The notes under the pieces: model-generated
What the model was told of the DNA's origin: nothing
The model's input: the letters and a program-made list of their open reading frames with translations, nothing else
The model's database searches: none
Made by a program: the position numbers and the translations under genes
Origin: Chrysochromulina parva
Lineage: Eukaryota > Haptophyta > Prymnesiales > Chrysochromulinaceae
DNA: 37,729 bases
Assembly: GCA_002887195.1 (NCBI GenBank)
Contig: PJAB01000145.1
Span: forward strand, 1 to 37,729
Direction: 5' to 3'
Shown: piece after piece, positions 5,532 through 36,079 of the stretch
Position numbering within the stretch: the stretch's first letter is position 1
Layout: every line of letters starts with the position of its first letter

Positions 5532-7506
5532 TCAGTGCCAGAGCATGAAGGTCGCCGCGCGCGGCGCTCCGCGTTTGGCCTCCTCGTTTGGCGCGCAGCA
5601 CCAGCTGCCTGCAATGTAGCCAAACTTGCGCTGCGCCGCCCGCTTCTGCTCGTCGCTCAGGACGGCGCTCCTGGTCGCCGTGAGGTCGAGCTTCGTGAAC
5701 GTGTTGGTGACGTGGAGGACCTTCGTGGACTTCATGGCATTGAGCCGTTGGAATTCGGATTCGCCACCGCCGCCCTCGGCGTTTGTGCCGAGGGTGACCT
5801 CGGCACGGGCTGCCTTGACAGCGGCGGGCATGCGGGGGTTGTCTAGCAGTGACCACTCTCGTATGGTGGAGACCGGCTCGAGCATACCCACCTCGATGAA
5901 ATGATCGAGTGGGCACTGGCGGATGGGCAACGCCCACGTGTGAGTGCCCGGTATGACGCCGCGCCAGAGCGGTCCCCAGTACTTATCGTAGCCGCACGTG
6001 ATCGCTGGGAGCACGAGCTTGCGCTTGAGGCTGTGCGCGAGCGCCAGGGCTGACTTGACCTGACGTAGCTGGTACTTGATGAGGGTTATGTGCCCCTGCA
6101 CGGTCATGCCGCCCGGCGGGTGCACAAGCGAGTCGGGCACCTCGAGCGCCATTGTGAGCAGACCGTTTGGAGGATCGTAATACTCCGGTGGGTCGACCCA
6201 CACCTGATGAAGGAGGCAATCAGAGGCCATGAGAGGCCATGAGAGGCCATGAGAGGCACTCAGCGGCTCGCTTCCTGACGTCAGCCCACACCTTGGCCTC
6301 GCGTAGCCTATGACGCTTGCCCGCGGCGGCTGCGTACTGGTACGTGGTGTGGATCGAATAGGGCGCCCATCCCTTTCGCTGGGCGAGCTGCGACACAAAG
6401 TAGTTGTGCCCACCGCAGAAGAGCGAGAGCGGCAGCACGCCCCCTATGACCTGTTCCTTGTAGGACCAAAAGAGGCGAGGGTCGGACAGACCATCCTTCC
6501 GATGCGGCTTCCACTTGAAGCGAGCGAGCCGGTTGAACTCGCCCTGGTCCCACTTGTTGCGGGGGTCGGAGCGGATCACCTCGCGCCACTCCTCCACCAG
6601 CGGCAGCGCCGACTTGCGAAAGAACATGTACCCGATGTTAAAGGCTGTGTGGATGCCGTTATGGTTCTCGAGCCCGTCGTCGTCGGTCGTATTCCCCAAG
6701 TGGTCACTGGTGGTCAGATAGCCCGCGTCCGGCCAGCGCGCGCTCATGAAGCTGAACGGCTCACGCAGCACGAACGCGTCCACGTCCGTGATGATCACCT
6801 CGAGATCCCACGAGATCGCCTTGTAGATGAGCTCGATCTTGTGCGGGCCGAGCGCTTTGAACGAGGGCGAGCCCCACGGCCACTCGCCCTCGGGTAGGTT
6901 GGTGCGCATGTCGAAGCACGGGATGCCGTTCTTGGACAAGCGTGTGAGTGCCTGCCCATCGGTCGCGCCCACCAACCAATTCGTCAGCCCGAGCGCGCGA
7001 ACGTGCGCCACCCACGACTCGGCGAAGTCGTAGCGGATCCGGTTGACAAAGGTGAGGATGATCTGCTTGTTGGTCGCGACGGCAAGGGCGCGCTCGCGCG
7101 TGAACTCGATGGATGCAGAGAGGCGGCGGCGGGGCATATTGGGGAGCTGCTGCAGCGTGATCGGGTCCAATGGAACCCCATGGAGGCGGAGAGGCGGCGC
7201 CAAGTCGGCCTGCACGGCGACGCCCGAGAGGCGCGATAGGTTGGATGCGCGGGCGCGTAGCTGCTGGCGCAGCTGATCGTGCTCGCGCGTGGTCGTGTTC
7301 ACGAGCAGCATGAGCTGCGCGTTCTCGTACTGCAGCGCCCTGAGCGGCCGGCGCACCGGCGTAAGGTCCCGGAAGGCGTGAGCGGCCTTGACGGAGCTCT
7401 GCGTCTCTCCGTCCATGCGCATGCCCGCGACGAAGAGGAAGGTGCAGCAGACGAACACGCAGATGCCGCCGCCGACTAGGCCGGAGCTGCCTCCCGTGCT
7501 TGACAT
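5532..7506 (-). CDS. GT77-family glycosyltransferase, XEG113/RRA-like (arabinosyltransferase-type), two exons
   Basis: The exons are 7506-6292 and 6203-5532 on the minus strand, giving 628 residues. A single N-terminal helix (GLVGGGICVFVCCTFLFVAG, about residues 10-29) gives a type II Golgi topology, followed by a stem. The catalytic region has NKQIILTFVN, the nucleotide-sugar/metal motif DVD in ITDVDAFVLREPF, and DQGEFNRLAR. Exon 2 carries KYQLRQVKSALALAHSLKR, CPLDHFIEV and a SLLDNPRMP motif. These match the C-terminal half of plant XEG113-type GT77 proteins, known as extensin hydroxyproline-O-arabinosyltransferases. The donor sugar and acceptor cannot be read from sequence; another nucleotide-sugar is possible. 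The single intron is introner-like. It diverges from the RING gene at 8189. Confidence 0.85.
6204..6291 (-). repeat. introner-like intron in the GT77 gene
   Basis: This is an 88-nt phase 0 intron. Read on the minus strand it starts GTGTGGGCTGAC, and the downstream exon starts GTGTGGGTCGAC, 10 of the first 12 matching. The body is a tandem TCTCATGGCC repeat (three copies, then a CTCTGATTGCC variant). It ends GCCTCCTTCATCAG. Splicing yields EAK-VWVDPP. Confidence 0.85.
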
Positions 7507-8188
7507 GTCTTCGTCCTGAGCAAGTCAAGACAAGTCGTGCAGACAAGTCGCGGCTTCTCTTCACAGGAAAGGCACAGAGTGTGTCTGTTGGGGAGTTTCC
7601 TCTTCCTTGGGTTGTTACATAGATCGTGAACACTTAGGCCAGTTGGAAATTGATGTGGAGCTTTTGACGGAACATAGATTAGCGATGCAATCATTAGTGA
7701 CTGCTTTCGGCGCGCCTGGACGGAAGCTCGCGCGAGCGGACCATCATGCGCTCGCTCCGCCAATTCAGGATGATGTCGCCGCAACAATCGTCCCCAACCA
7801 CGAGCTCGCCGCGGCCTGCATGGGGCGCACCACGACCTTCGCGCAGCCGGCCGAGTCTCAAGGCCCTCGTGCGTCCGCGGACGCCGATCATCTCCATCGC
7901 TGGCAATCCCAACCACTCAGAGCAATCTCTGCGCCTGAGGCACCTTCCAGGTGCACGCTCAGCACGAGTGGGCGCTACACACCTCCTCGCCTAAGCCGCA
8001 TCGGCTCTGGCGCTCAATCTTGCTGGCATCCGTCGGCCGCGGGGCGCTTCTGCCATGCTTCCATTGCACATGACACCGTGCAATCTCGTGTGAGTTCTTA
8101 AAACCTGGCGTTCGTCTCACGAGAAAACGCAGGCTTGCTGAAGCGTTTGATACGTCGCTTCCTACGATCCGGGAATGACAGCAGCGCG
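7507..8188. promoter_or_regulatory. divergent intergenic region (GT77 / RING)
   Basis: This is a 680-bp head-to-head gap. Open frames on both strands overlap each other and show no domain. I see no repeats. It presumably holds both promoters. Confidence 0.35.
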
Positions 8189-8902
8189 ATGCCCATCTCA
8201 CCGCCCGACACGCCGCTCTCGTCGGGACGCTCGACTGCGCCACTGTCGCCATCGCTGCCGTGCATTGCCGCCGCGCCGGCGGCGGCGGCCGCATTGTCCT
8301 CGTCGTCGTCATCGACCTCCTATGCCGCCGATCCAGTGCCCACCCAGCACGTCTACACCATCCGGCACTACCCGATCATGCTTTCGGTCGGACGTGAGGC
8401 GGCCGCTGCGAGCGCCGGCATGGACCTCACGACGTACAACTTGCTCATGGAGCTGCAGCAACGAGACATCACGCCTGAAGATTACGACATGCTCCGCCGC
8501 TTGGACTCATCCGTCCAGCCCAAGACCCTCAGCAGGCAGCGCCTCGACCAGCTCTGCCCGAGCTGGGTCGTACCGGCAGCCGACGCTGCTGCTGGCGTCG
8601 TACCTGCCGTAGCTGGTGCAGCGGCGCCGCCAGCCACGGAGGCGAGCGCGCCGGTGACGCGCAAGGCTGCGGCGGCGTCCGCCGCCGCCGCCGCCGCAGC
8701 CGCCGCCGCCGCCCCCGCCGCCAAGCGCCCTTGCCGCGACGCTGTGAGCATGGAGACATGCAGTATCTGCCTCGAGCCATTTGCATGCAAAGAGTGCATG
8801 CGCCGACTGCCATGTCGGCACCTGTTCCACACGACGTGCATCGACCATTGGCTCACTAGCTGCTCCAACCTGTGTCCCGAGTGCAACGTGTCGGTCGAAT
8901 AG
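8189..8902 (+). CDS. RING-H2 zinc-finger protein, probable E3 ubiquitin ligase
   Basis: The protein has 237 residues from the first ATG (8189); the frame is open further upstream but without an ATG. The C-terminal RING (about residues 190-233) reads CSICLEPF, CMRRLPCRHLFHTTCIDHWL and CPEC, giving the metal ligands of a C3H2C3 finger. It ends six residues later at TAG. The middle is low complexity: Ser runs and a polyalanine tract around 165-182 encoded by GCC/GCG runs. The N-terminal part is Pro/Ser-rich. From family knowledge the RING recruits an E2. I see no membrane helix or substrate domain, so target and location are unknown. Confidence 0.85.
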   Translation: MPISPPDTPLSSGRSTAPLSPSLPCIAAAPAAAAALSSSSSSTSYAADPVPTQHVYTIRHYPIMLSVGREAAAASAGMDLTTYNLLMELQQRDITPEDYDMLRRLDSSVQPKTLSRQRLDQLCPSWVVPAADAAAGVVPAVAGAAAPPATEASAPVTRKAAAASAAAAAAAAAAAPAAKRPCRDAVSMETCSICLEPFACKECMRRLPCRHLFHTTCIDHWLTSCSNLCPECNVSVE

Positions 8903-8961
8903 ACCGTGTGCCGTCCGTGCATGCAACGTGTCTGTCGAATAGACCGTGTGCCGTCCGTGCA
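8882..8961 (+). repeat. two 40-bp tandem repeats over the RING stop codon
   Basis: Units 8882-8921 and 8922-8961 match at 39 of 40 positions. Unit 1 contains the last codons and TAG stop of the RING gene. Unit 2 repeats the same coding end and stop in the 3' flank. Confidence 0.95.
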
Positions 8962-9464
8962 TGCAGGCATGCATGGCGCGCGGCGCATGCGTGCGTCCCC
9001 GAGCCATGGTCCCCGTCGCATTGCGGCCGGCGGGCTCGCCACGCGCGGCCACCACGTGTGTGTGATCAGTTCTCGCATGCCACCACCATGTGTGTGATAC
9101 CAGTGCTCGCATGATGATGATGATAGAGATCACGCATGAGGCACCTGTGGAATCATGATGAGGCATGACGACCAAGCCGGTAGCCGCGCACGGCAATCGC
9201 GCAGCTGGTGTGCGCTGTGCAGCGCGGCATGAAAACTTCCCCCAGCGCCGTGGCCACGCGTTATGTGACCCAGTGTTGAGGCCGTCCACATCGGCGCGCC
9301 GGGCGGTCCGACAATAGACTGTGTGAGTCGCACGCGGACACGTCGGTGTGCGGAAAAAGAGCTTACGAGGTTACGTGTTGCGTGTCGCGATTGGGAGGCG
9401 TATTCATAATGAAAAATAAATGAAAAAGAGCGTAACGAAAAACAATACGCGTGTTGATTCGTAA
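8903..9464. other. intergenic, convergent gene ends with short repeats
   Basis: It lies between the RING and J-domain gene ends. Besides the 40-bp duplication it has GCATGC-rich sequence (about 8960-8990) and a roughly 33-bp imperfect direct repeat at about 9048-9112 (CCACCA-GTGTGTGTGAT and CTCGCATG in each copy), then ATGATGATGATG. No gene is seen. Confidence 0.6.
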
Positions 9465-11321
9465 TTACACACGCTGCGCGTTCCAGTCGGAGCAGCAGCA
9501 ATCCGCATCGTACGCGGCGCGCAGCGCGTCATCGGATAGCACGCTCCACGCAGCGGCCAGCTCCTGGAAGCGCTCGTGCGCCACCGCTGCCTCGCATGCA
9601 CTGTCGTGAGCGTGCTTGTCGGGATGCCAGCGTAGCGCGAGCCTCCGATAGGCGCGTCGCAGCTCATCGGCCGTCGCGCGCACGTCGCAGCCAAGGACCG
9701 CATAGAAGTAGGGCGCCTCACAGGCGTGCGGGCTGGCGGTGGGCAGCTGCCTCCACGCCGCTACCACGGCAGAAAGGCCGCCCTTGTCTTCCTTGGAGGG
9801 GGCTGCTTGTAAAGGTGCATGGCCGGGCGTTGTGCCGGGCGTTGTCAGCTGCCGCCCTGGCTCGCGGCCCTGCTGATACGTAATAAGCGCCTCGGTTAGG
9901 GCGTTGAAGCCCCGAGTACGGGCGACCAACTGTTTCTCGGAACCATCCTCAGATTCGGTGGCCGTGGCCACCTCGGGGTATCTGCTGCTGCTGCGACTGA
10001 TGCGACCGTCACGCGAACAAGCCCTCTCCAGCGTCATCTCGAGCGCATCGCGTCGTGTCGCACGAACCGCGGCCAGCGTCGTCGTGGTGCTGGTCGTGTG
10101 GAGCGTGTCATGTTGAGCACATCGTGTCGTCGTCGTGTCGCGCTCGGCACGGCGCTCTGGCGACAATGGTTTCGCCACCATCGGATGGCCATTGCCCCAT
10201 TCGCCATGGTCCCATTCGCCATGGTCCCATTCGCCATGGTCCCATCGCGTGGACACGCGACGGTTGGGATGGCAAGTAGGTTGGTGGTGGGACTGCCGCG
10301 GCAGCGGCGGTGGCGGCGGCGGCGACGGCGGCGGCACATTGGCCGAGGTGGAGGCCGAGGTGGAGGCGGCCCGCAACTCCTTCGATTCCTCACGCGCGGC
10401 AGACAGGTGCCTCTTGGCTTGCTCGAGCGCCTCCTCGAGCGCTGCGGCGCGCGCCTCGGCCCGTGCCCGCGCCGCTGCCTCGACTGCCACGGCCAAGTCC
10501 GCTGCCGCTGAGGCTCGTGCCGCCGACTCAGAACGCGCCGTCCCGGCGAGTGCCGTAGCGCGCGTCGCCCCACTGCTGACGTACTGACGGCGGCGCCGGC
10601 AGCGCGCTGTGTGTCCCAAGTCGATTGACGGAGCCTCCACCGCCGAGATCTCAACCGCCGAGATCTCCACCGCCGAGATCTCCACCGCCGAGATCTCCAC
10701 CGCCGAGATCTCATCGCCATCGACGTAGCAGTACTGTGCGTCATCGACGACGCTCGATGCCGCAGCAAGATCATCCGCGGTGGGTTCAACACGGATCGCG
10801 CCGGCCGCATCCATGCCGCCTGCCACTTCCTCCGTGTTCGCGGTCGCACCGGTTTCCTTCGGCGCGCCTTCCTCATCCTCGTCCGACCGCACGCCCGCGG
10901 CAATGAGAGACCGCCTTAGCCGTCGCGCCGCCGTGTCCGTCGCGAGATTTGGTATCGTAAGGCAGTGCGTGCCGCTCTGTACGTGGACAGGCTTCGAGGG
11001 CTTGGTTGTGCGACGCTGAGGCTCCTCCTCCTCGCGCCCATGTGCACGCTCCTTTCGGCGCGGACGCTGCTCCTCCTTATGCCAATGCGCCCGCTCCTGG
11101 TCTCGCCACAGCTCAGGCGATGGCAATACGGTGGCTTCGTCGAGAGCGTTCCAGCGTGCCAACTCCTCTTTGCGCCACAGGCTAGGAGATGAAGGCCGCC
11201 GCCGCTGCTGCTGCTCAGTCAAGGGCGTCCTCGGGGGTTTGGACCACTTGTCTTTCCACTCATCTGCAACCGTTGATGCCTTCTTCTTCCAATCATCGAG
11301 CAGGCCAGATATGGCTGCCAT
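9465..11321 (-). CDS. large low-complexity protein with a C-terminal J domain (DnaJ-like co-chaperone)
   Basis: A single-exon frame of 618 residues starts at ATG 11321. The J domain lies at the extreme C-terminus (about residues 540-610): YFYAVLGCDVRATADELRRAY, then RWHPDKH with the HPD signature that stimulates Hsp70 ATPase, then helix 4. A C-terminal J domain without Gly/Phe or zinc-finger regions is a type III (DnaJC) layout. The rest is charged and repetitive: an Arg/Glu-rich N-terminus, five EISAV pentapeptides, an Ala/Glu-rich probable coiled coil (about 270-330), a proline run and three WDHGE repeats. I see no signal peptide or membrane helix. The repeats make the middle prone to length variation. 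Confidence 0.8.
   Translation of the reverse strand: MAAISGLLDDWKKKASTVADEWKDKWSKPPRTPLTEQQQRRRPSSPSLWRKEELARWNALDEATVLPSPELWRDQERAHWHKEEQRPRRKERAHGREEEEPQRRTTKPSKPVHVQSGTHCLTIPNLATDTAARRLRRSLIAAGVRSDEDEEGAPKETGATANTEEVAGGMDAAGAIRVEPTADDLAAASSVVDDAQYCYVDGDEISAVEISAVEISAVEISAVEISAVEAPSIDLGHTARCRRRRQYVSSGATRATALAGTARSESAARASAAADLAVAVEAAARARAEARAAALEEALEQAKRHLSAAREESKELRAASTSASTSANVPPPSPPPPPPLPRQSHHQPTCHPNRRVSTRWDHGEWDHGEWDHGEWGNGHPMVAKPLSPERRAERDTTTTRCAQHDTLHTTSTTTTLAAVRATRRDALEMTLERACSRDGRISRSSSRYPEVATATESEDGSEKQLVARTRGFNALTEALITYQQGREPGRQLTTPGTTPGHAPLQAAPSKEDKGGLSAVVAAWRQLPTASPHACEAPYFYAVLGCDVRATADELRRAYRRLALRWHPDKHAHDSACEAAVAHERFQELAAAWSVLSDDALRAAYDADCCCSDWNAQRV
10194..10243 (-). repeat. 15-bp tandem repeat encoding WDHGE x3
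   Basis: On the plus strand the unit is CCCATTCGCCATGGT, in three near-identical copies. It stays in frame within the J-domain protein. Confidence 0.9.
10637..10713 (-). repeat. 15-bp tandem repeat encoding EISAV x5
   Basis: There are five copies of a unit containing GCCGAGATCTC, almost identical, in frame within the J-domain protein. Confidence 0.95.
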
Positions 11322-11698
11322 ATGTAGGGAACGGCGTTCGCGTTCGTGGAGGCCGAGGCGCCGACGCGGGCCGGGCGTTGGAGAAGCAGGTAGCTACTCG
11401 TAGTGCGTCGTTCACACCTTCAAAAAAGCGTTGGTTAACGTACCGGTAGCTTCGGCAAGACGCGCTATACACGCCCTTCGAGGACCCGACCGGTGATAAC
11501 CTTTAAGACCGGAAACCGCCCCGAACCCGGGCCCTTCAATTTGCTTAAACCCCGTGACCGCACCAGCGTGGTAAAACTTAGAGTCAACTCGACTCGCCAT
11601 GATGTGGTCAGGCCGATGAGTGCAGATCGTGGGAGCTGGTACAGCTGTGGTTGGTACAACCCTATATCTGCTCATCAGACGCGGCAGGCCATCTGCAC
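11322..11698. other. intergenic region rich in inverted repeats (UreG 3' flank)
   Basis: It contains several small inverted repeats: GAGTC-aactc-GACTC (11581-11595), AGCTG-GTA-CAGCT and GGTTG-GTA-CAACC (about 11634-11660), and the inner part of a 16-bp inverted repeat (11612-11627 with 11691-11706). A 96-codon minus-strand frame (11702 down to 11412) overlaps the UreG stop but has no recognisable domain; I do not call it. Confidence 0.6.
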
Positions 11699-11706
11699 TC
11701 ATCGGC
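11612..11706. repeat. 16-bp perfect inverted repeat enclosing two mini-hairpins, over the UreG stop codon
   Basis: Arm 1 (11612-11627, GCCGATGAGTGCAGAT) is exactly complementary to arm 2 (11691-11706), with a 63-nt spacer. Arm 2 covers the UreG TGA (11699-11701). The spacer holds two further perfect 5-bp stems, each with a GTA loop. In the UreG transcript this could fold as a branched 3' structure; a small inverted-repeat element is an alternative. Confidence 0.85.
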
Positions 11707-12656
11707 TCGAGTGCTCATCATGGGAATGGCTGTGAATGTGGTCATCATGGGAATGGCTGTGGGAGTGAGGGCCGTGCTTTCCGTGGTGATTCGTGGCGTG
11801 CTCGCAAGACTCAAGGATGTGGCGGACGATCTCATCGACCTTTTGGTTCAATTTGACCGCGGCGAGCACGGTCGGTCCGTCACCTGTGGGGAGAGAGAGG
11901 GAGGGTTAGGCGCCGAAGTGAGCACTGGCATGCAGAAGGCGAGATCGAGGCGAGATCGAGCGCCGTCGGTCACTCACCGCGCATCTTGGCAGCGTCGCGC
12001 GCCATGACTTCGAGATCAGCACCCACGGCCTCTGCAAGGTCGATCTTGTTGATGACGAGCAGGTCGGACTGTGTCACGCCGGGCCCACCCTTGCGCGGCA
12101 CCTTGTCGCCGCCGGCCACATCGATCACGTAGATCGTGTAATCGGCCAGCTCGCTCGAGAAGTTGGCCGCGAGGTTGTCGCCGCCCGACTCGCACAGGAG
12201 CAGCTTCGGTGTCGGATAGACGCGCATGAGGTCCTCGAGCGCCGCGAGGTTCGAGGTGACGTCCTCGCGGATCGCCGCGTGCGGGCAACCGCCCGTCTCG
12301 ACCGCGCGGATGCGCTCGGCTGGCAGTGCGTTCTGCTTCGTGAGGTACTCGGCATCTTCACGCGTGAAGATGTCGTTCGTGACGACGGCAATCGAGTGGT
12401 GATCGCGCAGATGGCGGCACAGCTGCAGGACCAGCGCAGTCTTGCCCGAGCCGACAGGACCGCCGATGCCCACGGTGAAGGCCCGCTGCCTCCAGTCCCG
12501 GGTGGCCCACACGTGGTCCGAGCCCGTCTCGCGCATCGAAAAGGAGCCGACGCCGTGATCATGGCCGCCGTGCCAACGCACGCCACCGAGGAGGCGAAGT
12601 GTTGAGGCGGCGGTGGAGGCGGTTGTGGAGGCGCGAAGCACGGGCCGAAGGAACAT
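11699..12656 (-). CDS. ureG: urease accessory GTPase UreG, two exons, His-rich C-terminal tail
   Basis: The exons are 12656-11978 and 11883-11699, giving 287 residues. UreG is a SIMIBI GTPase that delivers nickel to apo-urease with UreF/UreD. Visible motifs: P-loop [13 protein letters not shown] (about 63-75), [15 protein letters not shown], the Ni-binding CPH in [46 protein letters not shown] and the NKID guanine motif. Splicing restores [15 protein letters not shown] in the terminal helix region. Two features are odd. The last 34 residues form a His-rich tail ([19 protein letters not shown]), whereas plant and many bacterial UreGs carry this at the N-terminus. The first 30 residues are Arg/Ser/Thr/Ala-rich without acids, like an organelle transit peptide, although UreG is usually cytosolic. 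It diverges from the FCP1-like gene only 190 bp away. Confidence 0.93.
11884..11977 (-). repeat. intron of ureG with downstream-exon duplication
   Basis: This is a 94-nt phase 1 intron. It begins GTGAGTGACCGACGGCG and the following exon begins GTGACGGACCGACCGTG, 14 of 17 matching. The body has a CTCGATCTCGC repeat and a pyrimidine tract ending CCCCACAG. It lacks the CTCATCAG end of the other duplicated-exon introns. Confidence 0.85.
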
Positions 12657-12846
12657 CGACTCTGGTACTACTGTCGCGCTGATTAGACCCTATTTTTGCG
12701 CTAGCGCGTGTGTGTTATTTTTGGAATCATGCGGAAGAAGCTAGGCTGGCCGTCGGTCGATAGAATGTGCGCTCGACCGGCGTTTTTCCTGTTTGCAGAA
12801 ACCTCAATGAAACCTCCGATCGTCATCGGGCCGCACGCTCCGCACG
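12657..12846. promoter_or_regulatory. 190-bp bidirectional promoter region (ureG / FCP1-like)
   Basis: Two opposite start codons are separated by 190 bp, with AT-rich patches (TATTTTTGCG, TGTTATTTTTGG) in the middle. Both transcripts must initiate here or within introns not seen. No specific element is recognised. Confidence 0.5.
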
Positions 12847-14155
12847 ATGTTTTGCGGCCCAGACGACGACGATGATGACTTCGACCAGTTCATGGAGGCC
12901 GCGCTCGCCGAGGAGATGGAGCAAGCACCGTCCTCTCCGGCTCCGCGGAAGAAGAAGCCTCGGAACGAGGCACAAGGCCTGCCAGGCGATGGCGGCCTAG
13001 GTGGGCTGGCCTACGTCGCGAGCGCAGGCGGTGGCGCCAGCACGTCCAGCCTGCCGACGAGCAAAGAATCGGCTGCGGCCACCAAGGAGGACGAGGAGGA
13101 CGAGGAGGAGGACGTTGAGGAGGAGGCGGCAGGCTACATGTGGGGCATGAACATCCTGACGGGCCGCACACGTGAACAGGATGAGGCCGACGGCCTCATT
13201 GCCAAGCGCGACGGCTCGAAGAAGAAAAAGGAGCTGGTGCAGCTCAAGTACGGCAGCTACCAGGGCCTGCAGCTGAGCGCCACCGAGGTGCGCCGCATCA
13301 AGGCGGAGGAATGCGATGCGATGCTCCGACGCCGAAAGCTCGGCCTCGTGCTTGACCTCGACCATACCTTGCTTAACTCCGCGACACACAATGAGCTCGA
13401 TGCGGATGCGCGCGCCGCGCTCGACCAGTGGGCGCGCAAGGAGCGTGGCCTGCCGCCCGCCACCGTGGAGAGTGCTACAGCACCGCCGAGCGCAAGTGTA
13501 GTGCCGACGGCGGCGGCCGAGGCGACGGGCGAGGCGACGGGCGAGGCGGTGGCGGCGGCAGCGGCGACGGCCGAGGCAGCGAGCGCCTGGGACAGCGAGG
13601 CCGCTGCAGCTGGCAGCTCTGCCATGGCGAGCAGCAGCGGCCAAGGTGCGCGATCAGAGGCGCTGCCATCACTCTTCCATCTAGCTCACATTCACATGTG
13701 GACCAAGCTGCGTCCATATGTGCGAGACTTCCTGCGCGGAGCGGCTGAGCTATTCGAGCTGCATGTCTATACGATGGGTGCCAAGGGGTACGCTGCGGAG
13801 ATGGTGGGGCTGCTTGATCCGACCGGAGAGCTCGGGCTGTTGCATGCGGACCGTGTCATCTCGAAGGACGACTCGACGAACTCGCACACTAAGTCACTCG
13901 ACGTCCTACTGGGCTCTGAACGAACCGCTCTGATCCTTGACGACTCGCCCTCGGTGTGGCCGCAGCAAGCCGCGCAGCTGCTCGTGCCGCGCAGGTACCA
14001 CTTCTTCCCCTCGTCCGCCGCGCGGGATGCCTCGCTCGCGCCCGGCTACGTGCCGTACCTGAACAGCGGGCAGGACGAGGCGGTAGAAGGAGGCCAGCTG
14101 CATGCACTCCTCGCCGCGCTCCGAGCCATCCACGCGGACTACTTCAAGCGACTGC

Positions 14156-14234
<79 letters not shown>

Positions 14235-14770
14235 CGGCGGCGGCGGCGTGCGTGAGCCATGGCCCCACGTGGCGGACGCCGTGCGCGCTGTGCGCCGGCG
14301 CGTGCTTCGAGGCAAGGTGCTCGTCTTCACGCACGTCATCCCCCTACAGCAGCAGAAGCATCCGGAGGCACACCCGGCGTGGCGGCTCGGCACAGAGCTA
14401 GGGGCGTCCATCCAGACGAGCACAGGCGCGGGCGTGACGCACGTCATCGCCGGCAACGACAGCACCGACAAGGTACGCACATTGGGCGCACTCGCTGCCC
14501 AAGGTCCGCTGAGGACCTCTGAGGACCTCTGAGGACTTCTGACGACCTCTGATGACCACTGATGACATCCCTGCTCAGGTACGTTGGGCGCGCTCACAGC
14601 CTGGGGTCCACGCGGTCTCGGTCGACTGGCTCGCCTCGTGCGGCTTTCTCTGGAGGGCTGCTGATGAGCACGAGTGGCCAGTGGAAGGAGTCGCGCCCGG
14701 TGCCGCTGGGAGCAGCACGCTGTGCCTCGGCCCAGGGGGAAGCACACTGCCGCCACCACAGATGCAGTAA
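12847..14770 (+). CDS. FCP1-like RNA polymerase II CTD phosphatase with poly-Q and BRCT domain, two exons
   Basis: The exons are 12847-14472 and 14579-14770, giving 605 residues. The FCP homology domain has the catalytic DLDHTLL (DxDxT, about residues 170-176), MWTKLRPYVRDFL, YTMGAKGYAAEMVGLLDP, and the DDS of LILDDSPSVW. An Ala/Glu/Gly-rich insert (about 205-275) splits the domain after the catalytic motif. A pure CAG-encoded run of 24 glutamines (14161-14232) precedes a C-terminal BRCT domain with VLVFTHVIP and GVTHVIAG. Exon 2 adds HAVSVDWLASCGFLW, which supplies the conserved Trp. From the family, FCP1 dephosphorylates Ser2/Ser5 of the Pol II CTD in the nucleus. The acidic N-terminus is intrinsically disordered. 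The BRCT domain is split by an introner-like intron. Confidence 0.9.
14161..14232 (+). repeat. uninterrupted (CAG)24 trinucleotide repeat in coding sequence
   Basis: There are 24 pure CAG codons encoding poly-Gln between the phosphatase and BRCT domains, with no CAA interruptions. Confidence 0.97.
14473..14578 (+). repeat. introner-like intron in the FCP1-like gene
   Basis: This is a 106-nt phase 0 intron. Its first 35 nt (GTACGCACATTGGGCGCACT then CGCTGCC, ending GGTCC) resemble the first 31 nt of the next exon (GTACGTTGGGCGCGCTCACA then GCC, ending GGTCC), with a 4-nt indel. The body is tandem CTCTGAGGAC / CTCTGATGAC units. It ends CATCCCTGCTCAG. Confidence 0.88.
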
Positions 14771-16079: not shown

Positions 16080-16174
16080 GTTGCGACGCGTGATTGCAAT
16101 CTCGAGCGTGATCTGTCACGCTTATGTGAGGTAAAAGGTCCTGAATCACAATTCCTGAGTGTGCGCTCCCCTCT

Positions 16175-29071: not shown

Positions 29072-30520
29072 CTAGTACGACCGAAGCGTGTAGCTCGGCC
29101 TGCCGGCCACGAGGCGCACGGCGGTTTTGGTCCACAGCGGCACTCCCTCGGGGGAGACGCTTGGAAGCGGTTCGGTCCAACGATTGCAACTCCCGACGAG
29201 CTTATGTTTGAACACGATGGTGCTCAGACGGAGATCAGCGTCAGCGAGATTTCTGTCCATTCGTACATCGGCGGCTTTCTGCACCTTCTCCACGGTCAGC
29301 GATCGGCGGCATGCGGCACTCTCGCTCTCGACGAGCATCAAAGGCGCGACGGAGCTGGTGTGCTGAGAGAGCTGCGCCGCACGCCGCCTTGCCGACGACA
29401 CCGTCAACGCGCTGCTGGAGTGCGCCGCGCGCACTCCGCCAGCGCCAGCGTGCGGTAAAGCTGACGATGTCGAGCCGAAGCCAATCAAGCTCTTACTCGT
29501 GCTGAGCAAGCCTGCGAAGGACATCGAGGTGAGCGGTGCCGGCGCGGGGAAGGCTGTCGAAGGGGCAGCCGTCGCGGGGGCAGCCGTCGCGGGGCGCAGC
29601 TCTAGACGTCTGAGCAGAGCGTCCGGCAGGCTTTTTGTCATCATCGGAGGTGCGGTCTGCGGCCGGCGCGGCGAGTCCGCCGGCAATTCGCTGTTCGATC
29701 GCGGAGACTGAGTGGTTGAGCGCGGAGATTGGTCCTTAGAGCGCGGAGATTGGTCAGTAGAGCGCGGAGACTGTTCCCTAAAGTTTGACGCCTCACGTGT
29801 CTGCACGCGCGCGAACGACAGCATCTCGCCACTGACAGTGCCGGGGGTGGTGCCTGGCCGGCGGATGGCTGCAGCCTGCTGTGCAAAGTCGCCGCGGAGC
29901 GAGTAGGATTTGTTTTTCGCATGCAACGAGATCGCGCCCGCGTTGCCGACCTGAAACTTCCGGGCCAGCCTGATCGTCGATCCCTGGCGCACCTGCCTGT
30001 GCAGCTCGTGGTACGTAAGGGACCCATCGCCGTTCACGTCCATGTCGTCGAAGACGCGATTGAGGTCGTCGTACTGGATGTCGAAACCGAGGAGCCCCAT
30101 CACCTTGCGGAACTCGGCCTTATCGATTTTGCCGCTTCCGTCCTGGTCGAATTGGCGGAACAGGTTCATCACCTGCTGTGCAGATGCAGCCAGCGCGTCG
30201 CGTAGGACATACTTGATGAACTCGGTGCGCGTGACCTCGCCTGAGCCGTCAAAGTCAAACTCGTCGAAGACGGCACCGCTCACGTGAGCTGGCACTTTCA
30301 CGCCGAGCGCGAGCACGGCCTGGTGCAGCTCCTCCTTGTTGAGGGTGCCCGATCCATCAAGGTCGATCATCTCAAAGAGCAAGCCAATCGTCCGCGCGGA
30401 CTGGCACAGCAAGTCCTTAACTTTCTTCTTGCCAACCCTCATAGCATTGATTTTTGCGGCCCTCTGCTCGTGTGCACGCTCAGCGGTTTCGCGCGACTCC
30501 TTGAGGTCAACGTGGACCAT
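29072..30520 (-). CDS. four-EF-hand calcium-binding protein with long disordered C-terminus
   Basis: A single-exon frame of 482 residues starts at ATG 30520. Four canonical EF-hand loops start at about residues 53 (DLDGSGTLNKEE), 89 (DFDGSGEVTRTE), 124 (DQDGSGKIDKAE) and 160 (DVNGDGSLTYHE). They have the calmodulin/centrin-like spacing of about 36, so all four should bind Ca2+. The C-terminal 280 residues are Ser/Ala/Pro-rich, including four QSPRSxx heptads, and end in a short ordered-looking segment. A basic N-terminal helix precedes the EF-hands. A cytosolic or flagellar calcium sensor or scaffold fits. No kinase domain is present. Confidence 0.85.
   Translation of the reverse strand: MVHVDLKESRETAERAHEQRAAKINAMRVGKKKVKDLLCQSARTIGLLFEMIDLDGSGTLNKEELHQAVLALGVKVPAHVSGAVFDEFDFDGSGEVTRTEFIKYVLRDALAASAQQVMNLFRQFDQDGSGKIDKAEFRKVMGLLGFDIQYDDLNRVFDDMDVNGDGSLTYHELHRQVRQGSTIRLARKFQVGNAGAISLHAKNKSYSLRGDFAQQAAAIRRPGTTPGTVSGEMLSFARVQTREASNFREQSPRSTDQSPRSKDQSPRSTTQSPRSNSELPADSPRRPQTAPPMMTKSLPDALLRRLELRPATAAPATAAPSTAFPAPAPLTSMSFAGLLSTSKSLIGFGSTSSALPHAGAGGVRAAHSSSALTVSSARRRAAQLSQHTSSVAPLMLVESESAACRRSLTVEKVQKAADVRMDRNLADADLRLSTIVFKHKLVGSCNRWTEPLPSVSPEGVPLWTKTAVRLVAGRPSYTLRSY
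29708..29800 (-). repeat. 21-bp tandem repeat encoding QSPRSxx x4
   Basis: Units contain GAGCGCGGAGATTGGTC on the plus strand. The heptapeptides contain Ser-Pro sites that could be phosphorylated. Confidence 0.85.
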
Positions 30521-30816
30521 GGTGGTCGTGCGAATGTGCGATGATCACGGACTGGACGGGGTGCGTGCGTCGCGAGGAAACGTCGCGGCAGCGAAAAGTT
30601 GCGAAGCGCGATGCGTACGTATACCCGGTACTCAAGCATTTCTAGCGGTACTGTTGCGTGCACATCTACGAAGATTTGTGGCTAGGTTTGTTCCTCAAAT
30701 TCACGGAGGTCGTCGGAGGTCGTCGGAGATCCGTATACGTCGACCTACCGGTGCACTACTGACCTCTACTTTTCCATGGAAAAATCTCGTCCGCACACCG
30801 CTCGCTCGCAAGAGGG
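30521..30816. promoter_or_regulatory. 296-bp bidirectional promoter region (EF-hand / ABCC)
   Basis: It separates two opposite ATGs. It contains three GGTCGTCGGA units (about 30706-30730). No known core element is recognised. Confidence 0.4.
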
Positions 30817-33800
30817 ATGTCGAAGGCGCCCGTATCGCCGGCTCGATCGGTCTCCGATGAGTGGCGCGCCGGGCCGTTGTCGAAGCTCTTCTTCTCCTGG
30901 ATATTCCCTCTCCTGCGCCTCGGCGCCCAGCGTCCGCTTCAGCGTGAGGACCTGGGCTTTGCCAACCCTTCAGACGAGGTGAAGCAGCATGCGGAGAGGC
31001 TGGAGGCCTGCCTTCGCACTACGGGTGGCAAGAGCTTTCGCGCTCTGACCAAGGCGTTCAGCTCTCACATGATCAAAGGTGCACTATGCAAGGGCCTTGG
31101 AGATTCCGCATCCTACGCCCAGCTGTGGGCCGTGAAGACGATCATTACCTATGCGGAGATGCGTGAGGCTGGCGTGGTGGAAGGCACCGTAGCATGGCCG
31201 GCCCGTCCGATTGCATCGTACTTTACCAACGCGCCGGCGGCGGCAATGGCACGCCCTGGTGCACCCCGCGTGGTGGATCTCGCCGTCCTGCTGCTGCTCC
31301 TTGGCCCAATGGTCTCGGGCCTCGGGCTGCATTGGTTCTATCACTATGTGATGCTTGATGGTCTGCACGCGCGTTCGGCCCTCAAGTCGGTCCTCTTCCG
31401 CAAGCTGCTGCGCGTCCCGGCGGTGGGCGGGCAGCACGCGGATGGCTCGATCACCGCCGCAACAGACGGCCACTTGACGAGCGGCCTGAGCGGGCCTGCC
31501 AAGGTGAAGGAGGACGACGGCGGCTCGGGGAAGCTGCTCAACCTGCAGAACGGCGACGCTCGCGCGGTGGAGAACGTCTACCACATGTGCGTCTACTGGA
31601 TCTTCGTCCCGATCCAGATCGCGATCTACCTCTTTGTCCTCTCCCTCGAGATCGGCGCCTCGGCCGCCGTCGGGCTCGCATGCATGAGCCTGGCGGTACC
31701 CGCGCAGGTGAGTGGTGCTGGTGGCGTCGGAATGCGTCCGATTGCGTCTGAGTGCGTCCGATGACCTTCGATGTTTGCCTCCGATGGCCTCTGATGGCCT
31801 CTGATGGCCTCTGATGGGTTCTGGCGTCGCCGGCGCAGGTCCTGCTGAGCGGCCGCATGAAGAAGGCGCAGGGCAGCCTGCTCTCAGCCTCCGACCGCCG
31901 GATGCGCAGCGTCAAGGAGACTGTCCATGGTATCCAGGCCGTGAAGGCCTTTGGGTGGGAGCCGGCGTTTGGAGAGCGAGTTCGCCGGGCGAGGGATGAG
32001 GAGCTCAGGCACAACTTGGTCGTGCAGCGCCTCTCGGCGGTCTCAAGTGCTGTCATGGAGGCGTTGCCTATCGTGTGCGCCCTGGCGTCGCTCGCGAGCT
32101 ATGGGCTCTTCTACCCGGACTCACCGCTCACGGCCTCGCGCGCGTTCATGTCGCTCCTGGTCTTTAACCAGCTACGCATGCCGCTGATGATCCTTCCATT
32201 TACGATCCTCGTCACTATTGGAGGTCTCGCTGCAGTGAAACGCATTGACGAATTCCTGTCGGTGCCCGAGGTCGAGCCTCTCCCCGACCACACGAGAGGC
32301 GGCGGCGGAGGGAAGCAGGGGGAGGCCGGGGGGGATGCCCACGACGACGCCTGTACGGTCCGGATCGTGGGGGGCGTCTTCCAGTGGCCCAAGTCGTTGG
32401 TGAAGCGGCCGAGCGCGCCCAAGCCACGCACAGGCGACGAGGAGGCGGAGGCCGGTATACCCATAGCCGCAGGCGCGACGACGGCGCCCGTGACGGCGCC
32501 GTTCCAGCTGGGCGGCGATCGGGGCGCGCCGATCGAGCTTCGCTGCGCCCCGGGACTGACGGTGATCCTTGGGAGCGTCGCCTCGGGCAAGTCGGCGCTG
32601 CTCAACGCATGCCTTGGGGAGATGAGCGTCGTGCGCGGCGCCGTCTCCGTGCGCGGGCGCATGGCGCTATGCCCGCAAACACCCTGGATCTTCAACGCGA
32701 GCCTCAGAGACAATGTACTCTTTGGAGCACCACCGTTGATGACCGCTGATGACCGCTGATGGCCGCTGATTGCCGCTGATGCCCGTTGATGGCCGCTGAT
32801 GAACATTGATTGCCTTCCTCATCAGGTGCTCTTCGGCGCGCCACATGATGCGGCGCGCTACCAGCGCGTCCTTGAGGCGTGCGCTCTCGAAGCCGACCTG
32901 GCGGCGCTGCCGTCGGGTGACGCCACAGAGATTGGCGAGAGGGGCGTCACGCTCTCGGGCGGACAAAAGGCGCGCGTCTCCCTAGCGCGCGCGCTGTATG
33001 CCGACGCGGACGTGTACCTCCTCGACGACGTGCTCAGCGCTGTGGATGCACATGTGGGCCGTCACCTCGTCGATCAGGCGCTCGGGGCGACGCTCGTGGC
33101 CAACGGGCGTACGGTCCTCCTCGCGTCGCACCAGCTCAGTGTCATCGACCGCGCGGATAGGGTCCTCATCCTGCGCGACGGCCACGTGGCTTTTGACGGC
33201 ACGCCCGCGTCGTGCCGAGCGTCCGAGGCCTTCGCGGCCATCCGTGGCGAGCACGACAGCAAGGCCGACCTTAGCATGGGTGCCGTGCCGAGGTGGACGG
33301 CAACCCCCGAGATCGGCCTCGTGTACGTCAAGGAGGGTGCGCCAGCTGCGCCCGCCGACGGAGCCTCAAGCAAGGGTGTTGGTGCAGGGTCCAGAGGGTC
33401 CGAAGGCGTCGACGGCGGCGACAGTGGTGGCTCGGAGGCGCAGGGGGGGCAGAGTGCCGTCATGAGCGCTCAAGAGGGCGCGTCCGCCGACCTCGGCAAG
33501 CTGACGGCCGCCGAAGATCGCGAGACAGGCTCAGTCTCTATGCGCGTACTCGCCACGTACGGCCGGCTCGGCGGCAGCGCGCTCGCGGCCCTCGCCCTCG
33601 CCCTTCTGGTGCTCAAGTCGGGGGCCGCTGTCGGCTGTCAGGGCTGGGTGGCCGCTTGGACGGCGAAGACATCGTCGCCGGCGAAGGTATCGTCGCCGGC
33701 GAGTGCCAACGCGACCTCGGCGCTTGGGCTTGGGCCGCACGAGCCGCCTGTGGCGTACGCGCCCTTCGCGAGCGCGCAAGACGAGACGATGTGGTACATT

Positions 33801-36079
33801 TCCATCTACGCCCTGCTCTCTCTCGGCGCACTCATCTTCGTGCTCGTACAGCAGCTCTCGTGCGTCACGCTCTCAATCAACGCTTCGGCCCGCGTGCATG
33901 CGCACGCCTTCCGCGCCATCTCTCGCGCGCCGATTAGCTTCTTCGAGACGACGCCGACGGGACGCATCCTGGCGCGCTTCGGCAACGACATGAACGTGGT
34001 CGACACGATGCTGATGAAGTCGCTCAACCAGTCCGGCTCGCAGTTCTGCGTGCTCGTTGTCGTCTTCATCATGAACGCGTGCCTCGTGCCGTGGCTGGTC
34101 GCAATCTCGCTGCCCCTCATCGTCGTCTGTACGCGCCCTACACCACAACGCACCGCCATTGCCCCACCCCCGCCACTCCCCTCCCACCCTCGCCCCGCCC
34201 CCCCTTGCCCCAATTCCCAGCCCCCTTCCATCGCTCCCCCTCCTTCTCCTCCGCTGCTCACTACGGCGCGTGCTCCTCGGCCGCAGACACCGTTCTCGCG
34301 CAGCTCTACCGGCGCTCCTCGCGCGAGCTCAAACGGCTCGAGAATATTGCCGAGACGCCCGTGTACTCGGGCTTCGCGTCCTGCATGGACGGGCTTCTCA
34401 CAATCCGTGCGTTCCGCGGCTCCGCGGAGCGCCTGACGCAGCAGACGGACCGGACGATCGACGATTGGGTCGCCTGCTGGCTCAAGAACAACATCGCCAA
34501 CCGATGGATGGGCATACGCCTCGACATGATCGGTGCCGGCCTCTCGGGTTCAGTAGGGCTCTTCGGGCTGCTCTGGGCCGATGGCGTCATTGGTGACGGG
34601 GCGGCCGCGTTCAACGCGGGGGTCATCGGTCTGATGCTCAGTTTCACGGCCTCGCAGGCCTCCATGCTCAATTGGATGGTGCGCGGTGTCGCTGAGGCTG
34701 AGCAGCACGCCACGTCGTTTGAGCGCTGCCTGACGATGGCAAATGTACCGCCCGAGCGCTGGGGCGACGAACACGACGACGGCGGCGACGACAGGGCGGC
34801 GGCGGAGGAGGGTGCTCAGGACGGCGCGCCCACCAAGTCGACCTCCAAGGGCGCCCGGGACGGCGCCCGGGACGGCGCCTGTGACGCTCGCAAGGGCGGC
34901 AGGCTCTCCTCGGCCGAGATGACAGCCATCCCAACGGCCGGTGCCAGCGTCGCGGTGGCGGCGGTGCTCTCCTCGGCCGAGATGACAGCCATCCCAACGG
35001 CCGGTGCCAGCGTCGCGGTGGCGGCGGTGCCGCCCACCGCCGCCACGATCGCCCACACGAACTGGCCGACAATCGGCGCGATCGAGATCTGTGAGCTCTC
35101 GATGCGCTACCGGCCGGGGCTGCCCCTCGTACTCAACGGCGTCTCGCTCTCCATCCGCGGCGGCGAGCGCATCGGCATCTGCGGCCGCACGGGCAGTGGT
35201 CAGTCGCTCTCGAAGTGCCCTTGATGGCCCCTTGATGGCCCCTTGATGGCCTCTTGATGGCCACACTCATGGCCACTGAGTGCCTCCCTCATCAGGCAAG
35301 TCCTCCCTTTCAAAGTGCCTGCTCCGACTCGTCGAGTATGCGGGCGGCGACATCCTCATCGACGGCCGCTCAGCGAGCGCGTTGCCGCTCCGTACGCTGC
35401 GTCGTAGCATGGCGATGGTTCACCAGGACCCGAGTCTCTTTTCGGGCTCGCTGCGACACAATCTCGACCCGACCGCCTCCTTTGGCGAGAAGGAGCTCCG
35501 TGACGCCCTCGGCAAGTCCTCTTGATTGCTGCTTGATTGCCTCTTGATGGCCACTGGATTGCCACTTGATGGCCACTTGATTGCCACTTGATGGTCACTG
35601 GATTACCGCGACGCCCTCGGCAAGTTCTCCCTCGCCCCCCTCTCGGCTCCTGTTTGCCTCTTGTTGCCACTCATCGCAATTGATGGCCTCCCTCATCAGG
35701 CAAGGCCTCCCTCGGACATCTCGCCCTGGATGACGAAGTGGACGAGGGTGGCGCTAATTTGTCTGCTGGCGAGCGGCAGCTCGTCTGCCTCGCACGCGTG
35801 CTGCTCGTACGGCCCAAGATCCTGCTACTCGACGAGGCCACGTCCTCGCTCGATCGGCGCACCGATGAAGCCGTGCAGGCGGCCGTGCGCGCGCTCTCGG
35901 GCGTCACCATCCTGAGCATCGCCCACCGGCTCGAGACCTTGATGGAGTATGACAAAGTCGTCGTGCTCGACCAGGGCCGGGTGGCGGAGATGGGCCCTCC
36001 ACGGGAGCTCGCCAGCCGTGCCGACGGTCTTTTTGCCGCCCTCCTGCGGCGCCAGCGCGGCGGCGAGACAGCGCAGTGA
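30817..36079 (+). CDS. ABCC (MRP)-type full ABC transporter, six exons
   Basis: The exons are 30817-31707, 31839-32714, 32826-34128, 34287-35198, 35296-35511 and 35700-36079, giving about 1525 residues in TMD1-NBD1-TMD2-NBD2 order without TMD0. The N-terminus (LSKLFFSWIFPLLRLGAQRP) is the typical ABCC lasso entry. NBD1 has Walker A GSVASGKSALL, signature TLSGGQKARVSLARAL, Walker B VYLLDDVLSAVD with Asp in place of the catalytic Glu (normal ABCC asymmetry) and H-loop ASHQLS. NBD2 has GRTGSGKSSLSKCLL, a variant signature NLSAGERQLVCLAR, Walker B ILLLDEATSSLD and SIAHRLE. TMD2 contains ISFFETTPTGRILARFGND. The family exports glutathione, glucuronide or other organic anions. Four of five introns look introner-like. 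Intron 5 uses a GC donor. Confidence 0.93.
31708..31838 (+). repeat. ABCC intron 1, introner-like with an upstream-exon copy at its 3' end
   Basis: This is a 131-nt phase 0 intron. Its last 18 nt (CTGGCGTCGCCGGCGCAG) match the last 18 nt of exon 1 (CTGGCGGTACCCGCGCAG) at 14 positions. The body holds GCGTCCGAT and GCCTCTGATG tandem repeats. Here the duplicated flank is upstream, the reverse of the other introns. Confidence 0.75.
32715..32825 (+). repeat. ABCC intron 2, introner-like
   Basis: This is a 111-nt phase 0 intron. Its first 19 nt (GTACTCTTTGGAGCACCAC) match exon 3 (GTGCTCTTCGGCGCGCCAC) at 15 positions, and all four mismatches are codon third positions. The body is eight or so GCTGATGNC units. 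It ends GCCTTCCTCATCAG. Confidence 0.9.
34129..34286 (+). other. ABCC intron 3 (C-rich, ordinary class)
   Basis: This is a 158-nt phase 1 intron with a GTACGC donor and GGCCGCAG acceptor, dominated by a long pyrimidine strand of CCCC and CCACC runs. Splicing restores IVV-Y-TVLAQLYRRSSRELKRL. There is no clear exon copy and no CTGATGGCC repeats. Confidence 0.8.
34904..35029 (+). repeat. exact 63-bp coding duplication in the ABCC linker before NBD2
   Basis: Units 34904-34966 and 34967-35029 look identical. Each encodes LSSAEMTAIPTAGASVAVAA plus V. A shorter GARDGARDGA repeat lies just upstream. The lack of synonymous divergence implies a recent event. Confidence 0.95.
35199..35295 (+). repeat. 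ABCC intron 4, introner-like, inside NBD2 Walker A
   Basis: This is a 97-nt intron splitting the GSG|KSS codons. Its start (GTCAGTCGCTCTCGAAGTGC) is a copy of exon 5 (GCAAGTCCTCCCTTTCAAAG then TGCC) with a 3-nt deletion. The body is CCTTGATGGCC units. It ends GCCTCCCTCATCAG. Confidence 0.88.
35512..35699 (+). repeat. ABCC intron 5, GC-AG, containing a copy of the exon 5/6 junction
   Basis: This is a 188-nt intron with a GCAAGT donor, the only one that keeps ALGKASLGHLAL in frame. Exon 6 begins GCAAGGCCTC against the intron's GCAAGTCCTC. Near 35606-35633 the intron holds CCGCGACGCCCTCGGCAAGT then TCTCCCTCG. This matches the spliced exon 5/6 sequence (CCGTGACGCCCTCGGCAAGG then CCTCCCTCG) at 25 of 28 positions. 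TTGATGGCCA repeats flank that copy. It ends GCCTCCCTCATCAG. Confidence 0.88.

What the first reader, a model, noticed from the sequence alone, without database searches (positions are those of the whole stretch)
6204..35699. Family of introner-like introns: copy of the downstream exon start, tandem body, shared TCATCAG end
Five introns in three genes (GT77 6204-6291; FCP1-like 14473-14578; ABCC 32715-32825, 35199-35295, 35512-35699) begin with a diverged copy of the next exon's first 10-30 nt. They continue as short tandem repeats with TGATGGCC/CTGAC cores. Four of them end GCCTYCYTCATCAG and the FCP1-like one ends CATCCCTGCTCAG. The shared 3' module points to a repeated element, and the exon copy looks like a target-site duplication that supplies the donor splice site. 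This matches the known logic of introner elements, but the long diverged duplications and minisatellite bodies look distinctive. Ordinary introns in the same window (cathepsin, phosphoesterase) lack all three features.
Basis: partly seen in the sequence, partly recalled or inferred. Interest (0 to 1): 0.92.

Follow-up and report, generated by a model that had tools for sequence, protein, structure and literature searches.

The report
Jumping introns flanked by exon copies
In a genome that is likely a haptophyte alga's, about 2,200 places carry the same short word found at the 3' end of these introns, and about half of the sampled simple ones start with a copy, roughly 14 to 40 letters long, of the exon that follows, so such introns were likely inserted into genes as mobile pieces at staggered cuts and probably spread through RNA copies.

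Summary
The five introns are real and belong to a large repeated family. CCTYCYTCATCAGG occurs 1,294 times in the 45-Mb genome (reversed control 2), CCTCATCAGG 2,219 times (23), the full 20-mer CTGATTGCCTCCCTCATCAG 525 times (0). Of 89 sampled simple sites, 44 carry a scoring copy of the downstream exon start, against 1 of 350 shuffled pairs and 3 of 89 displaced controls. In 25 single insertions chosen for a clear copy, copies are 14-37 nt (median 24), 7 exact. The 3' end is constant, the 5' end is not; bodies repeat every 10 nt. Excision gives full-length GT77, FCP1-like and ABCC proteins. Relatives' proteins run through two sites, which suggests gains. Corrections: an unmentioned UreG-like intron has the best exon copy of ten window introns scored; one of the five copies is not significant alone. 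These are introners, but not the TIR/short-TSD DNA-transposon kind. Target-primed reverse transcription fits best; staggered-break capture is the main rival. No RT was linked: eight fetched LINE-tail copies have TSDs of about 12-16 nt.

The parts
6204..6291 (-). Family intron in GT77-like gene; 12-nt exon copy at 6280-6291, 3' module 6204-6221
   Evidence: 628-aa ORF when excised, stop when not; anchored score 8, null >=8 in 2 of 488; near-identical protein P0002 reads into it
6192..6203 (-). Exon-side copy of the repeat (start of downstream GT77 exon)
   Evidence: sequence
14473..14578 (+). Diverged family intron in FCP1-like gene, 3' end CATCCCTGCTCAG; exon copy 14473-14507 vs exon 14579-14609
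   Evidence: 605-aa ORF with NIF and BRCT domains when excised; score 7, null >=7 in 7 of 488
32715..32825 (+). Family intron in ABCC gene; exon copy 32715-32733 vs exon 32826-32844; eight 10-nt units
   Evidence: score 11, null 0 of 488
35199..35295 (+). Family intron inside the ABCC Walker A codons; weak exon copy 35199-35219 vs 35296-35319 (3-nt gap)
   Evidence: PDB alignment runs without a gap through the junction; copy score 3, not significant alone
35512..35699 (+). Family intron in ABCC, GC-AG; exon copy 35512-35521 vs 35700-35709; third exon copy at about 35607-35634
   Evidence: score 8
31708..31838 (+). Sixth intron with TGATGGCCTC units; acceptor GGCGCAG resembles the end of the upstream exon
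   Evidence: frame stays open when excised; no downstream-exon copy (score 2)
11884..11977 (-). Intron of a UreG-like gene with pyrimidine-rich 3' end and a 21-nt exon copy (17 of 21): a second class
   Evidence: score 13; gene by PF02492 CobW/HypB/UreG
5532..7506 (-). GT77-like gene (PF03407), exons 7506-6292 and 6203-5532
12847..14770 (+). FCP1-like gene, exons 12847-14472 and 14579-14770
30817..36080 (+). ABCC transporter gene, six exons: 30817-31707, 31839-32714, 32826-34128, 34287-35198, 35296-35511, 35700-36080

Best explanation
The five introns belong to a dispersed family whose 3' core word CCTCATCAGG occurs 2,219 times in this genome and of whose 89 sampled simple members 44 begin with a copy of the exon that follows (14-37 nt in 25 clear single cases), so members were likely inserted at staggered cuts and copied in from an RNA, probably an excised intron, by reverse transcription primed at the target. 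Steps: (1) [inferred] an RNA ending ...CAUCAG, the 3' end of a spliced-out intron, is the template. (2) [inferred] One strand is nicked just before a G in an exon, often AG|GTRCG, and the freed end primes cDNA synthesis from the RNA 3' end. (3) [inferred] The other strand is cut 14-37 nt further on, so that stretch is duplicated. (4) [shown in sequence] The element's 3' end abuts the right copy exactly; its 5' end is variable and joins the left copy, with some shared letters. (5) [predicted from frames] The left copy starts with GT or GC and supplies the donor; the element supplies the branch-like CTGAT and the CAG. Splicing would restore the original reading frame whatever the repeat length. 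(6) [arrays shown, their growth inferred] Units multiply locally in tandem, inside bodies and as whole copy-plus-element arrays.
For: Family: 1,294 hits vs 2 reversed control; 2,219 vs 23; 525 exact 20-mers vs 0, of which 89 are followed by a letter other than G, so 436 of 525 by G; a 20-mer has 0 hits in viral contigs and 1 in 257 Gb of prokaryote contigs. Exon copy: 44 of 89 score >=12 vs 1 of 350 shuffled and 3 of 89 displaced; >=16: 33 vs 0 vs 2; 30 of 55 in the second batch, 14 of 34 in the first plus window. Variable repeat length: 25 strict singles 14-37, median 24, 7 exact. 5' end variable. Excision: frame open across the junction in 23 of 34 vs 0 of 34 unspliced, 16 and 11 with a 1- or 2-nt shift, mean 17.7 with swapped flanks; a Pfam model spans it in 7 of 10 chosen fragments; open frames of at least 2,484 aa (L010) and 781 aa (L023) restored, L010 with polyketide-synthase domains on both sides. 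Gain: four GT77 relatives and one TPR relative run through the site, while near-identical P0002 and P0087 read into the intron. Short RNAs are retroposed here: an APE-endonuclease LINE, 40 places with its 3' tail, TSDs at eight of eight fetched ~80-nt copies. 5' junction overlap: mean 2.14 vs 1.20 letters, 0 of 1,000 shuffles, 21 of 25 sites.
Against: No RT is tied to the family: LINE A ends in (TTAC)n and eight of its small copies have TSDs of about 12-16 nt, shorter than the introners' (Mann-Whitney p about 6e-5 with all eight, 4e-4 with the six read by script). Forty-five of 89 simple sites show no copy at this threshold. Selection for frame-preserving splicing could by itself favour an exact 3' end. 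The frame test is weak in this GC-rich genome: swapped flanks reach 23 of 34 in at least one of 200 shuffles. About a third of a letter of the junction overlap is expected from how the repeat end is defined, so one search is only suggestive. The exon copy also occurs in introns with unrelated bodies. No RNA-seq. Copies outside genes were not examined.
Confidence: 0.52

Rival explanations
1. Capture at staggered double-strand breaks: paired nicks leave 14-37-nt overhangs, fill-in duplicates the exon stretch, and a stray piece of intron DNA or cDNA is joined in by end joining. Only pieces ending exactly at an AG survive selection.
For: Variable repeat length and some 5'-junction overlap; two intron classes with unrelated bodies share the same architecture; Daphnia neointrons are explained this way (PMC4202315, passages read).
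Against: Daphnia intron/exon repeats are given as 4-12 bp, and the passages I read name no common 3' module. Here one exact 20-nt end recurs 525 times and its 10-nt core 2,219 times, which random capture would not give without very strong selection or an amplifying source.
Confidence: 0.27
2. Introner of the known non-autonomous DNA-transposon kind, moved by a transposase, with the left target duplication used as donor.
For: Same splice logic as the Symbiodinium introners of PMC9860276 (element carries the 3' splice site, duplication gives the 5' one); CTGATGA and TCATCAG are complementary.
Against: Repeat length is not fixed (14-37, n=25); element 5' starts differ from site to site, so there is no matching inverted end. 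No transposase search was made.
Confidence: 0.1
3. Local exon tandem duplication around AGGT followed by minisatellite growth, with no mobile element.
For: The intron starts with an exon copy at AG|GT; tandem arrays are seen in several loci; the mechanism is known elsewhere (PMC3443670, passages read).
Against: Only the first 14-37 nt are exon-like; the rest, including the 18-20-nt 3' module, is shared between unrelated genes.
Confidence: 0.06
4. Chance or artefact: similar GTRCG starts, low complexity or misassembly.
For: Donor-like GTRCG starts give every pair some similarity; bodies are low in complexity.
Against: Shuffled pairs share that bias and still give 1 of 350; near-identical proteins that differ from ours at a few residues read into the same two introns.
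Confidence: 0.02

Closest known systems
Introners in Symbiodinium microadriaticum (PMC9860276, Fig. 2B legend read)
   Same: Element carries the 3' splice site; the target duplication supplies the 5' one.
   Different: There: 4-bp TSDs and TIRs. Here: variable 14-37-nt duplications, no constant 5' end, 10-nt tandem bodies.
Introners in Chrysochromulina sp. (PMC9860276, Fig. 2C legend read; a haptophyte, recalled)
   Same: Likely the same algal group; no TIRs.
   Different: 4-bp TSDs; the element carries the 5' splice site and borrows the 3' one, the reverse of this case.
Amoebophrya introners (PMC7789003, passages read)
   Same: Direct repeats at the borders of repeated introns.
   Different: 3-5-nt direct repeats, 8-20-nt inverted repeats, non-canonical splice sites.
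Daphnia neointrons from staggered breaks (PMC4202315, passages read)
   Same: Exon end duplicated at the opposite intron end.
   Different: 4-12 bp; no common 3' module in the passages read.
Intron gain by tandem genomic duplication (PMC3443670, passages read)
   Same: AG|GT reuse; intron starts like the downstream exon.
   Different: There the whole intron is exon-derived.
LINE/SINE retroposition (TPRT; recalled, plus this genome's LINE A copies)
   Same: Fixed 3' end, variable 5' end, flanking target duplications.
   Different: No poly-A or (TTAC)n tail; longer duplications; no RT linked.

Membership tests
Introner (intron-generating repeated element) | Many introns in unrelated genes share sequence | tested here: met
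   1,294, 2,219 and 525 hits vs 2, 23 and 0 controls; different Pfam models span the junction in 7 of 10 chosen fragments
Introner (intron-generating repeated element) | Similarity extends to near both splice boundaries (PMC9860276 pipeline) | tested here: not met
   Where a copy is seen, the first 14-37 nt are locus-specific and the 5' ends differ; only the 3' end is common
Introner (intron-generating repeated element) | Inserts into exons de novo, leaving the protein intact | tested here: inconclusive
   Supporting but indirect: relatives' proteins colinear through the GT77 and TPR sites; frames restored in the window and in L010, L023. No empty-site DNA was seen
DNA-transposon introner (MITE type) | Fixed short TSD (3-9 bp) | tested here: not met
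   14-37 nt, median 24, n=25
DNA-transposon introner (MITE type) | Terminal inverted repeats | tested here: not met
   The 25 element starts listed share no common 5' end
TPRT retroelement (LINE/SINE type) | Constant 3' end, variable 5' end | tested here: met
   (sites were found by a 3' word, so the last letters are fixed by the search)
TPRT retroelement (LINE/SINE type) | Variable-length target duplications | tested here: met
TPRT retroelement (LINE/SINE type) | 3' tail shared with an RT-encoding partner | tested here: not met
   For LINE A only: it ends in (TTAC)n. LINE B 3' ends were not determined; isolated TCATCAG words lie inside its frames
TPRT retroelement (LINE/SINE type) | RNA intermediate | not testable with these tools
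   No RNA or mobilisation data
Tandem genomic duplication intron | Intron wholly derived from flanking exon | tested here: not met
   Body and 3' module are shared family sequence
Spliceosomal intron | Removed from mRNA at these borders | not testable with these tools
   No RNA-seq; supported by frames and domains only

The most novel reading that the evidence does not exclude
In this haptophyte lineage spliced-out introns in general, not one selfish element, are retroposition templates: their CAG-OH 3' ends are reverse transcribed directly into nicked AG|GY sites of exons, leaving long exon duplications, so at least two unrelated intron classes (the TGATTGCC family and the pyrimidine-rich class of the UreG-like intron) carry the same scar. 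That would be a working intron-transposition pathway caught in the act.
Probability: 0.2. Interest if true: 0.93.

Novelty: new variant of a known kind. Interest (0 to 1): 0.74.

Why it matters
How new introns arise is a long-standing question, and a broad survey concluded that most introners move as DNA transposons (PMC9860276, section 4 read). Here a family whose 3' core word occurs 2,219 times leaves long, often still exact exon duplications, so insertion site, repeat length and relative age should be readable at hundreds of loci. Such families are easily missed: that survey required similarity near both intron ends and removed low-complexity families by hand (sections 4 and 17 read). I found no report of introners with variable duplications of this length in the searches (open-licence PubMed Central papers only; mostly listings seen).

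Tried and rejected
Synonymous divergence: in ABCC-32715 all four differences between the copies fall on third codon positions (by eye), but over 23 sites mismatches by codon position were 6, 16 and 13 of 187, 185 and 183, so I see no coding constraint on the intron copy. LINE partner: RVT_1 gave 5 hits, one with an APE-type endonuclease; LINE A's 3' end is not introner-like. A hairpin near LINE A's 3' end resembles CTGAT...ATCAG (by eye); not pursued. PF07727 and PF14529 gave nothing; for PF07727 the control rang nowhere, so that is uninformative. First microhomology test (15 periodic bodies: mean 1.53 vs 0.55, permutation p 0.003) included array members and was replaced. One search's Mann-Whitney used a typed list of LINE-tail TSDs with two values set low; repeated with the values. 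The open repeat scan was swamped by satellites: 113 hits vs 128 for its control. The regex scan counted overlapping matches several times; one search is the deduplicated version. One search had the cathepsin, UreG-like and phosphoesterase borders wrong; one search corrects them. One search had a faulty pattern and crashed; rerun. Viral scan: none. The one bacterial hit is compatible with chance and was not used.

Full report
WHAT WAS CHECKED. The window is contig C145 of a 45.07-Mb, 2,199-contig assembly with no relatives held. The host is read as a haptophyte because the best named relatives of the GT77 protein come from Prymnesium, Calcidiscus, Coccolithus and Emiliania; land-plant proteins follow at lower scores, and the top hits are unnamed (86 hits). 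This rests on one protein.

THE FIVE INTRONS. Pfam finds PF03407; NIF plus BRCT; and two ABC_membrane and two ABC_tran stretches. The ABCC NBD2 aligns to ABCC2 (8rq3_A) without a gap through the Walker A codons that intron 35199-35295 splits. Against 488 mismatched pairs the anchored exon copies score 8, 7, 11, 3 and 8; the fourth is not significant alone. The FCP1-like 3' end looks like a diverged form of the family end (by eye).

THE FAMILY. CCTYCYTCATCAGG occurs 672 times forward and 622 reverse, reversed control 1 and 1; CCTCATCAGG 1,158 and 1,061, control 12 and 11; the full 20-mer CTGATTGCCTCCCTCATCAG 290 and 235, control 0 and 0. Tandem units count separately. Of the 525 20-mers 89 are followed by a letter other than G, hence 436 by G; the next-letter preference therefore does not come from my choice of loci. 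Across 89 simple sites the letters -20 to -14 read CTGATTG at 65-94% per position; the last 11 were constrained by the search pattern, and loci were chosen on the last 13 plus G. Body autocorrelation peaks at 10 nt (0.46) and 20 nt (0.35) over 25 sites. A 20-mer of the end is absent from viral contigs and occurs once in the prokaryote set.

THE EXON COPY. I analysed the window, 20 stretches of up to 10 kb and 50 short loci taken around places listed. They hold 118 usable sites, of which 89 have no family repeat in the next 75 nt. The first two exon letters at 119 sites: GT 90, GC 21, CG 4, GA 2, GG 1, AA 1; a few of the non-G sites are chance matches to the pattern. Score >=12: 44 of 89 real, 1 of 350 shuffled, 3 of 89 displaced by 50 nt. 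Batches: 14 of 34 (first fetch plus window) and 30 of 55 (second fetch). Forty-one sites score >=13. After dropping 16 (inner or multi-unit array members and L037), 25 singles have copies of 14-37 nt, median 24, with 0-7 differences, 7 exact; their introns are 66-223 nt long. Shorter copies would escape this threshold. In the 41, the letters left of the repeat are G (30) and A (20) at -1 and -2; the exon copy starts G 40, then T 34 or C 5, with G at +5 in 30. Where the left flank lacks AG, the AG must come from the element.

ARE THEY INTRONS ELSEWHERE? Of 34 non-inner sites, 23 have a frame open over 150 nt upstream plus 210 nt downstream after excision. Control: unspliced 0 of 34, one letter off 16, two letters off 11, flanks swapped between sites mean 17.7 with 23 reached in at least one of 200 shuffles. 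So the short frame test shows that the insert must go, but places the border only weakly. Better: of 10 fragments that I chose from 36 because they looked protein-like, a Pfam model spans the junction in 7 (L068, L023, L077, L032, L019, L013, L055; in L077 only by models below their curated cut-off), lies beside it in one (L010), and none is found in two (L043, L031). In L010 excision restores an open frame of at least 2,484 aa with ketoacyl-synthase, carrier and other polyketide-synthase domains on both sides; in L023 one of 781 aa.

GAIN, NOT LOSS. Of the 86 GT77 hits I looked at five. P0001, P0003, P0004 and P0005 run straight through the junction; P0002, nearly identical to ours, ends by reading into this very intron. 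P0005 also contains what looks like a read-through of another intron, so these gene calls seem not to be splice-aware and continuity there suggests an empty site. For L023 I looked at two of 240 hits: P0087 (99%) reads into the introner with one changed residue, and P0088 (56%) runs through. So both introns seem to be shared by other strains or alleles and to be missing, at the protein level, in relatives.

HOW IT PROBABLY WORKS. Constant 3' end, variable 5' end, variable-length target duplications and no inverted ends are the marks of target-primed reverse transcription (recalled knowledge of LINE and SINE insertion). The left duplicate provides GT/GC and the element provides CAG, so splicing would restore the frame for any repeat length. 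The genome has a LINE with an APE-type endonuclease and RT (L080). Its 3' tail gave 41 matches at 40 places, with 40 of 79 candidates scored. The eight ~80-nt tail copies that I fetched all have target duplications of about 12-16 nt: six by script, two (L090, L093) by eye. Short RNAs are therefore retroposed here, but with shorter duplications than the introners' (p about 6e-5 with all eight, 4e-4 with six) and a different tail. The introners' enzyme is unknown. At the 5' junction the family sequence runs 2.14 letters into the repeat on average against 1.20 with swapped tails (21 of 25 sites, 0 of 1,000 shuffles); by my estimate about 0.3 of this is built in, so I call it suggestive.

A SECOND CLASS. 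The intron 11884-11977 (minus) of a UreG-like gene (PF02492) ends in CTCTCTCCCCACAG, has no TGATTGCC body, and its first 21 nt match the next exon at 17 positions. Two predicted introns in L014 show the same (24 nt with 2 differences; 16 nt with 2). In a strict scan of 27 loci, 4 of 9 polypyrimidine AG|GY sites (one is a variant of the main family) score >=12, against 2 of 55 GA/AC controls and 0 of 23 shuffled pairs. The sample is small. If it holds, the insertion scar is a property of the host pathway, not of one element; this is the basis of the novel case.

VERDICT. A real, abundant introner family with an unusual scar: a new variant of a known kind. I put about 0.93 on dispersed introner family with long target duplications, and about 0.5 on the whole account including retroposition.

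Noticed in passing
window 11884-11977 (-); L014 minus-strand predicted introns ending at 9081 and 9352: Pyrimidine-rich introns outside the CATCAG family also start with a 16-24-nt copy of the next exon.
   Followed up: partly
L080 (C34), L083 (C324); L086-L093: APE-endonuclease LINE with (TTAC)n tail and ~80-nt SINE-like copies of its 3' end with target duplications of about 12-16 nt.
   Followed up: partly
L081/L082 (C103), L084 (C1434), L085 (C2182): Further RVT_1-bearing long frames (up to 2,709 aa in C103), apparently a second group.
   Followed up: no
L010 (C5:11000-20900): Very large polyketide-synthase frame interrupted by an introner with an exact 14-nt exon copy.
   Followed up: partly
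window 31708-31838: Intron with TGATGGCCTC units whose acceptor resembles the end of the upstream exon, a mirror-image arrangement.
   Followed up: partly
L023 site 4945: Introner with an exact 24-nt repeat starting GA, so a predicted GA-AG intron, in a TPR gene.
   Followed up: partly
L028 sites 4714-4985; L022, L027, L057: Arrays of whole copy-plus-element units joined AG|GT, each a possible intron or recursive splice step.
   Followed up: no
C1628, C1743, C2032 and C1323: The 20-mer CTGATTGCCTCCCTCATCAG followed by C or T recurs every 21-22 nt in places: satellites of the 3' module itself, not followed by a G[TC] exon start.
   Followed up: no
window 14160-14232: Long CAG (glutamine) run in the FCP1-like gene.
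   Followed up: no
window about 34905-35030: Tandemly duplicated segment inside an ABCC exon (repeated LSSAEMTAIPTAGASVAVAAV).
   Followed up: no
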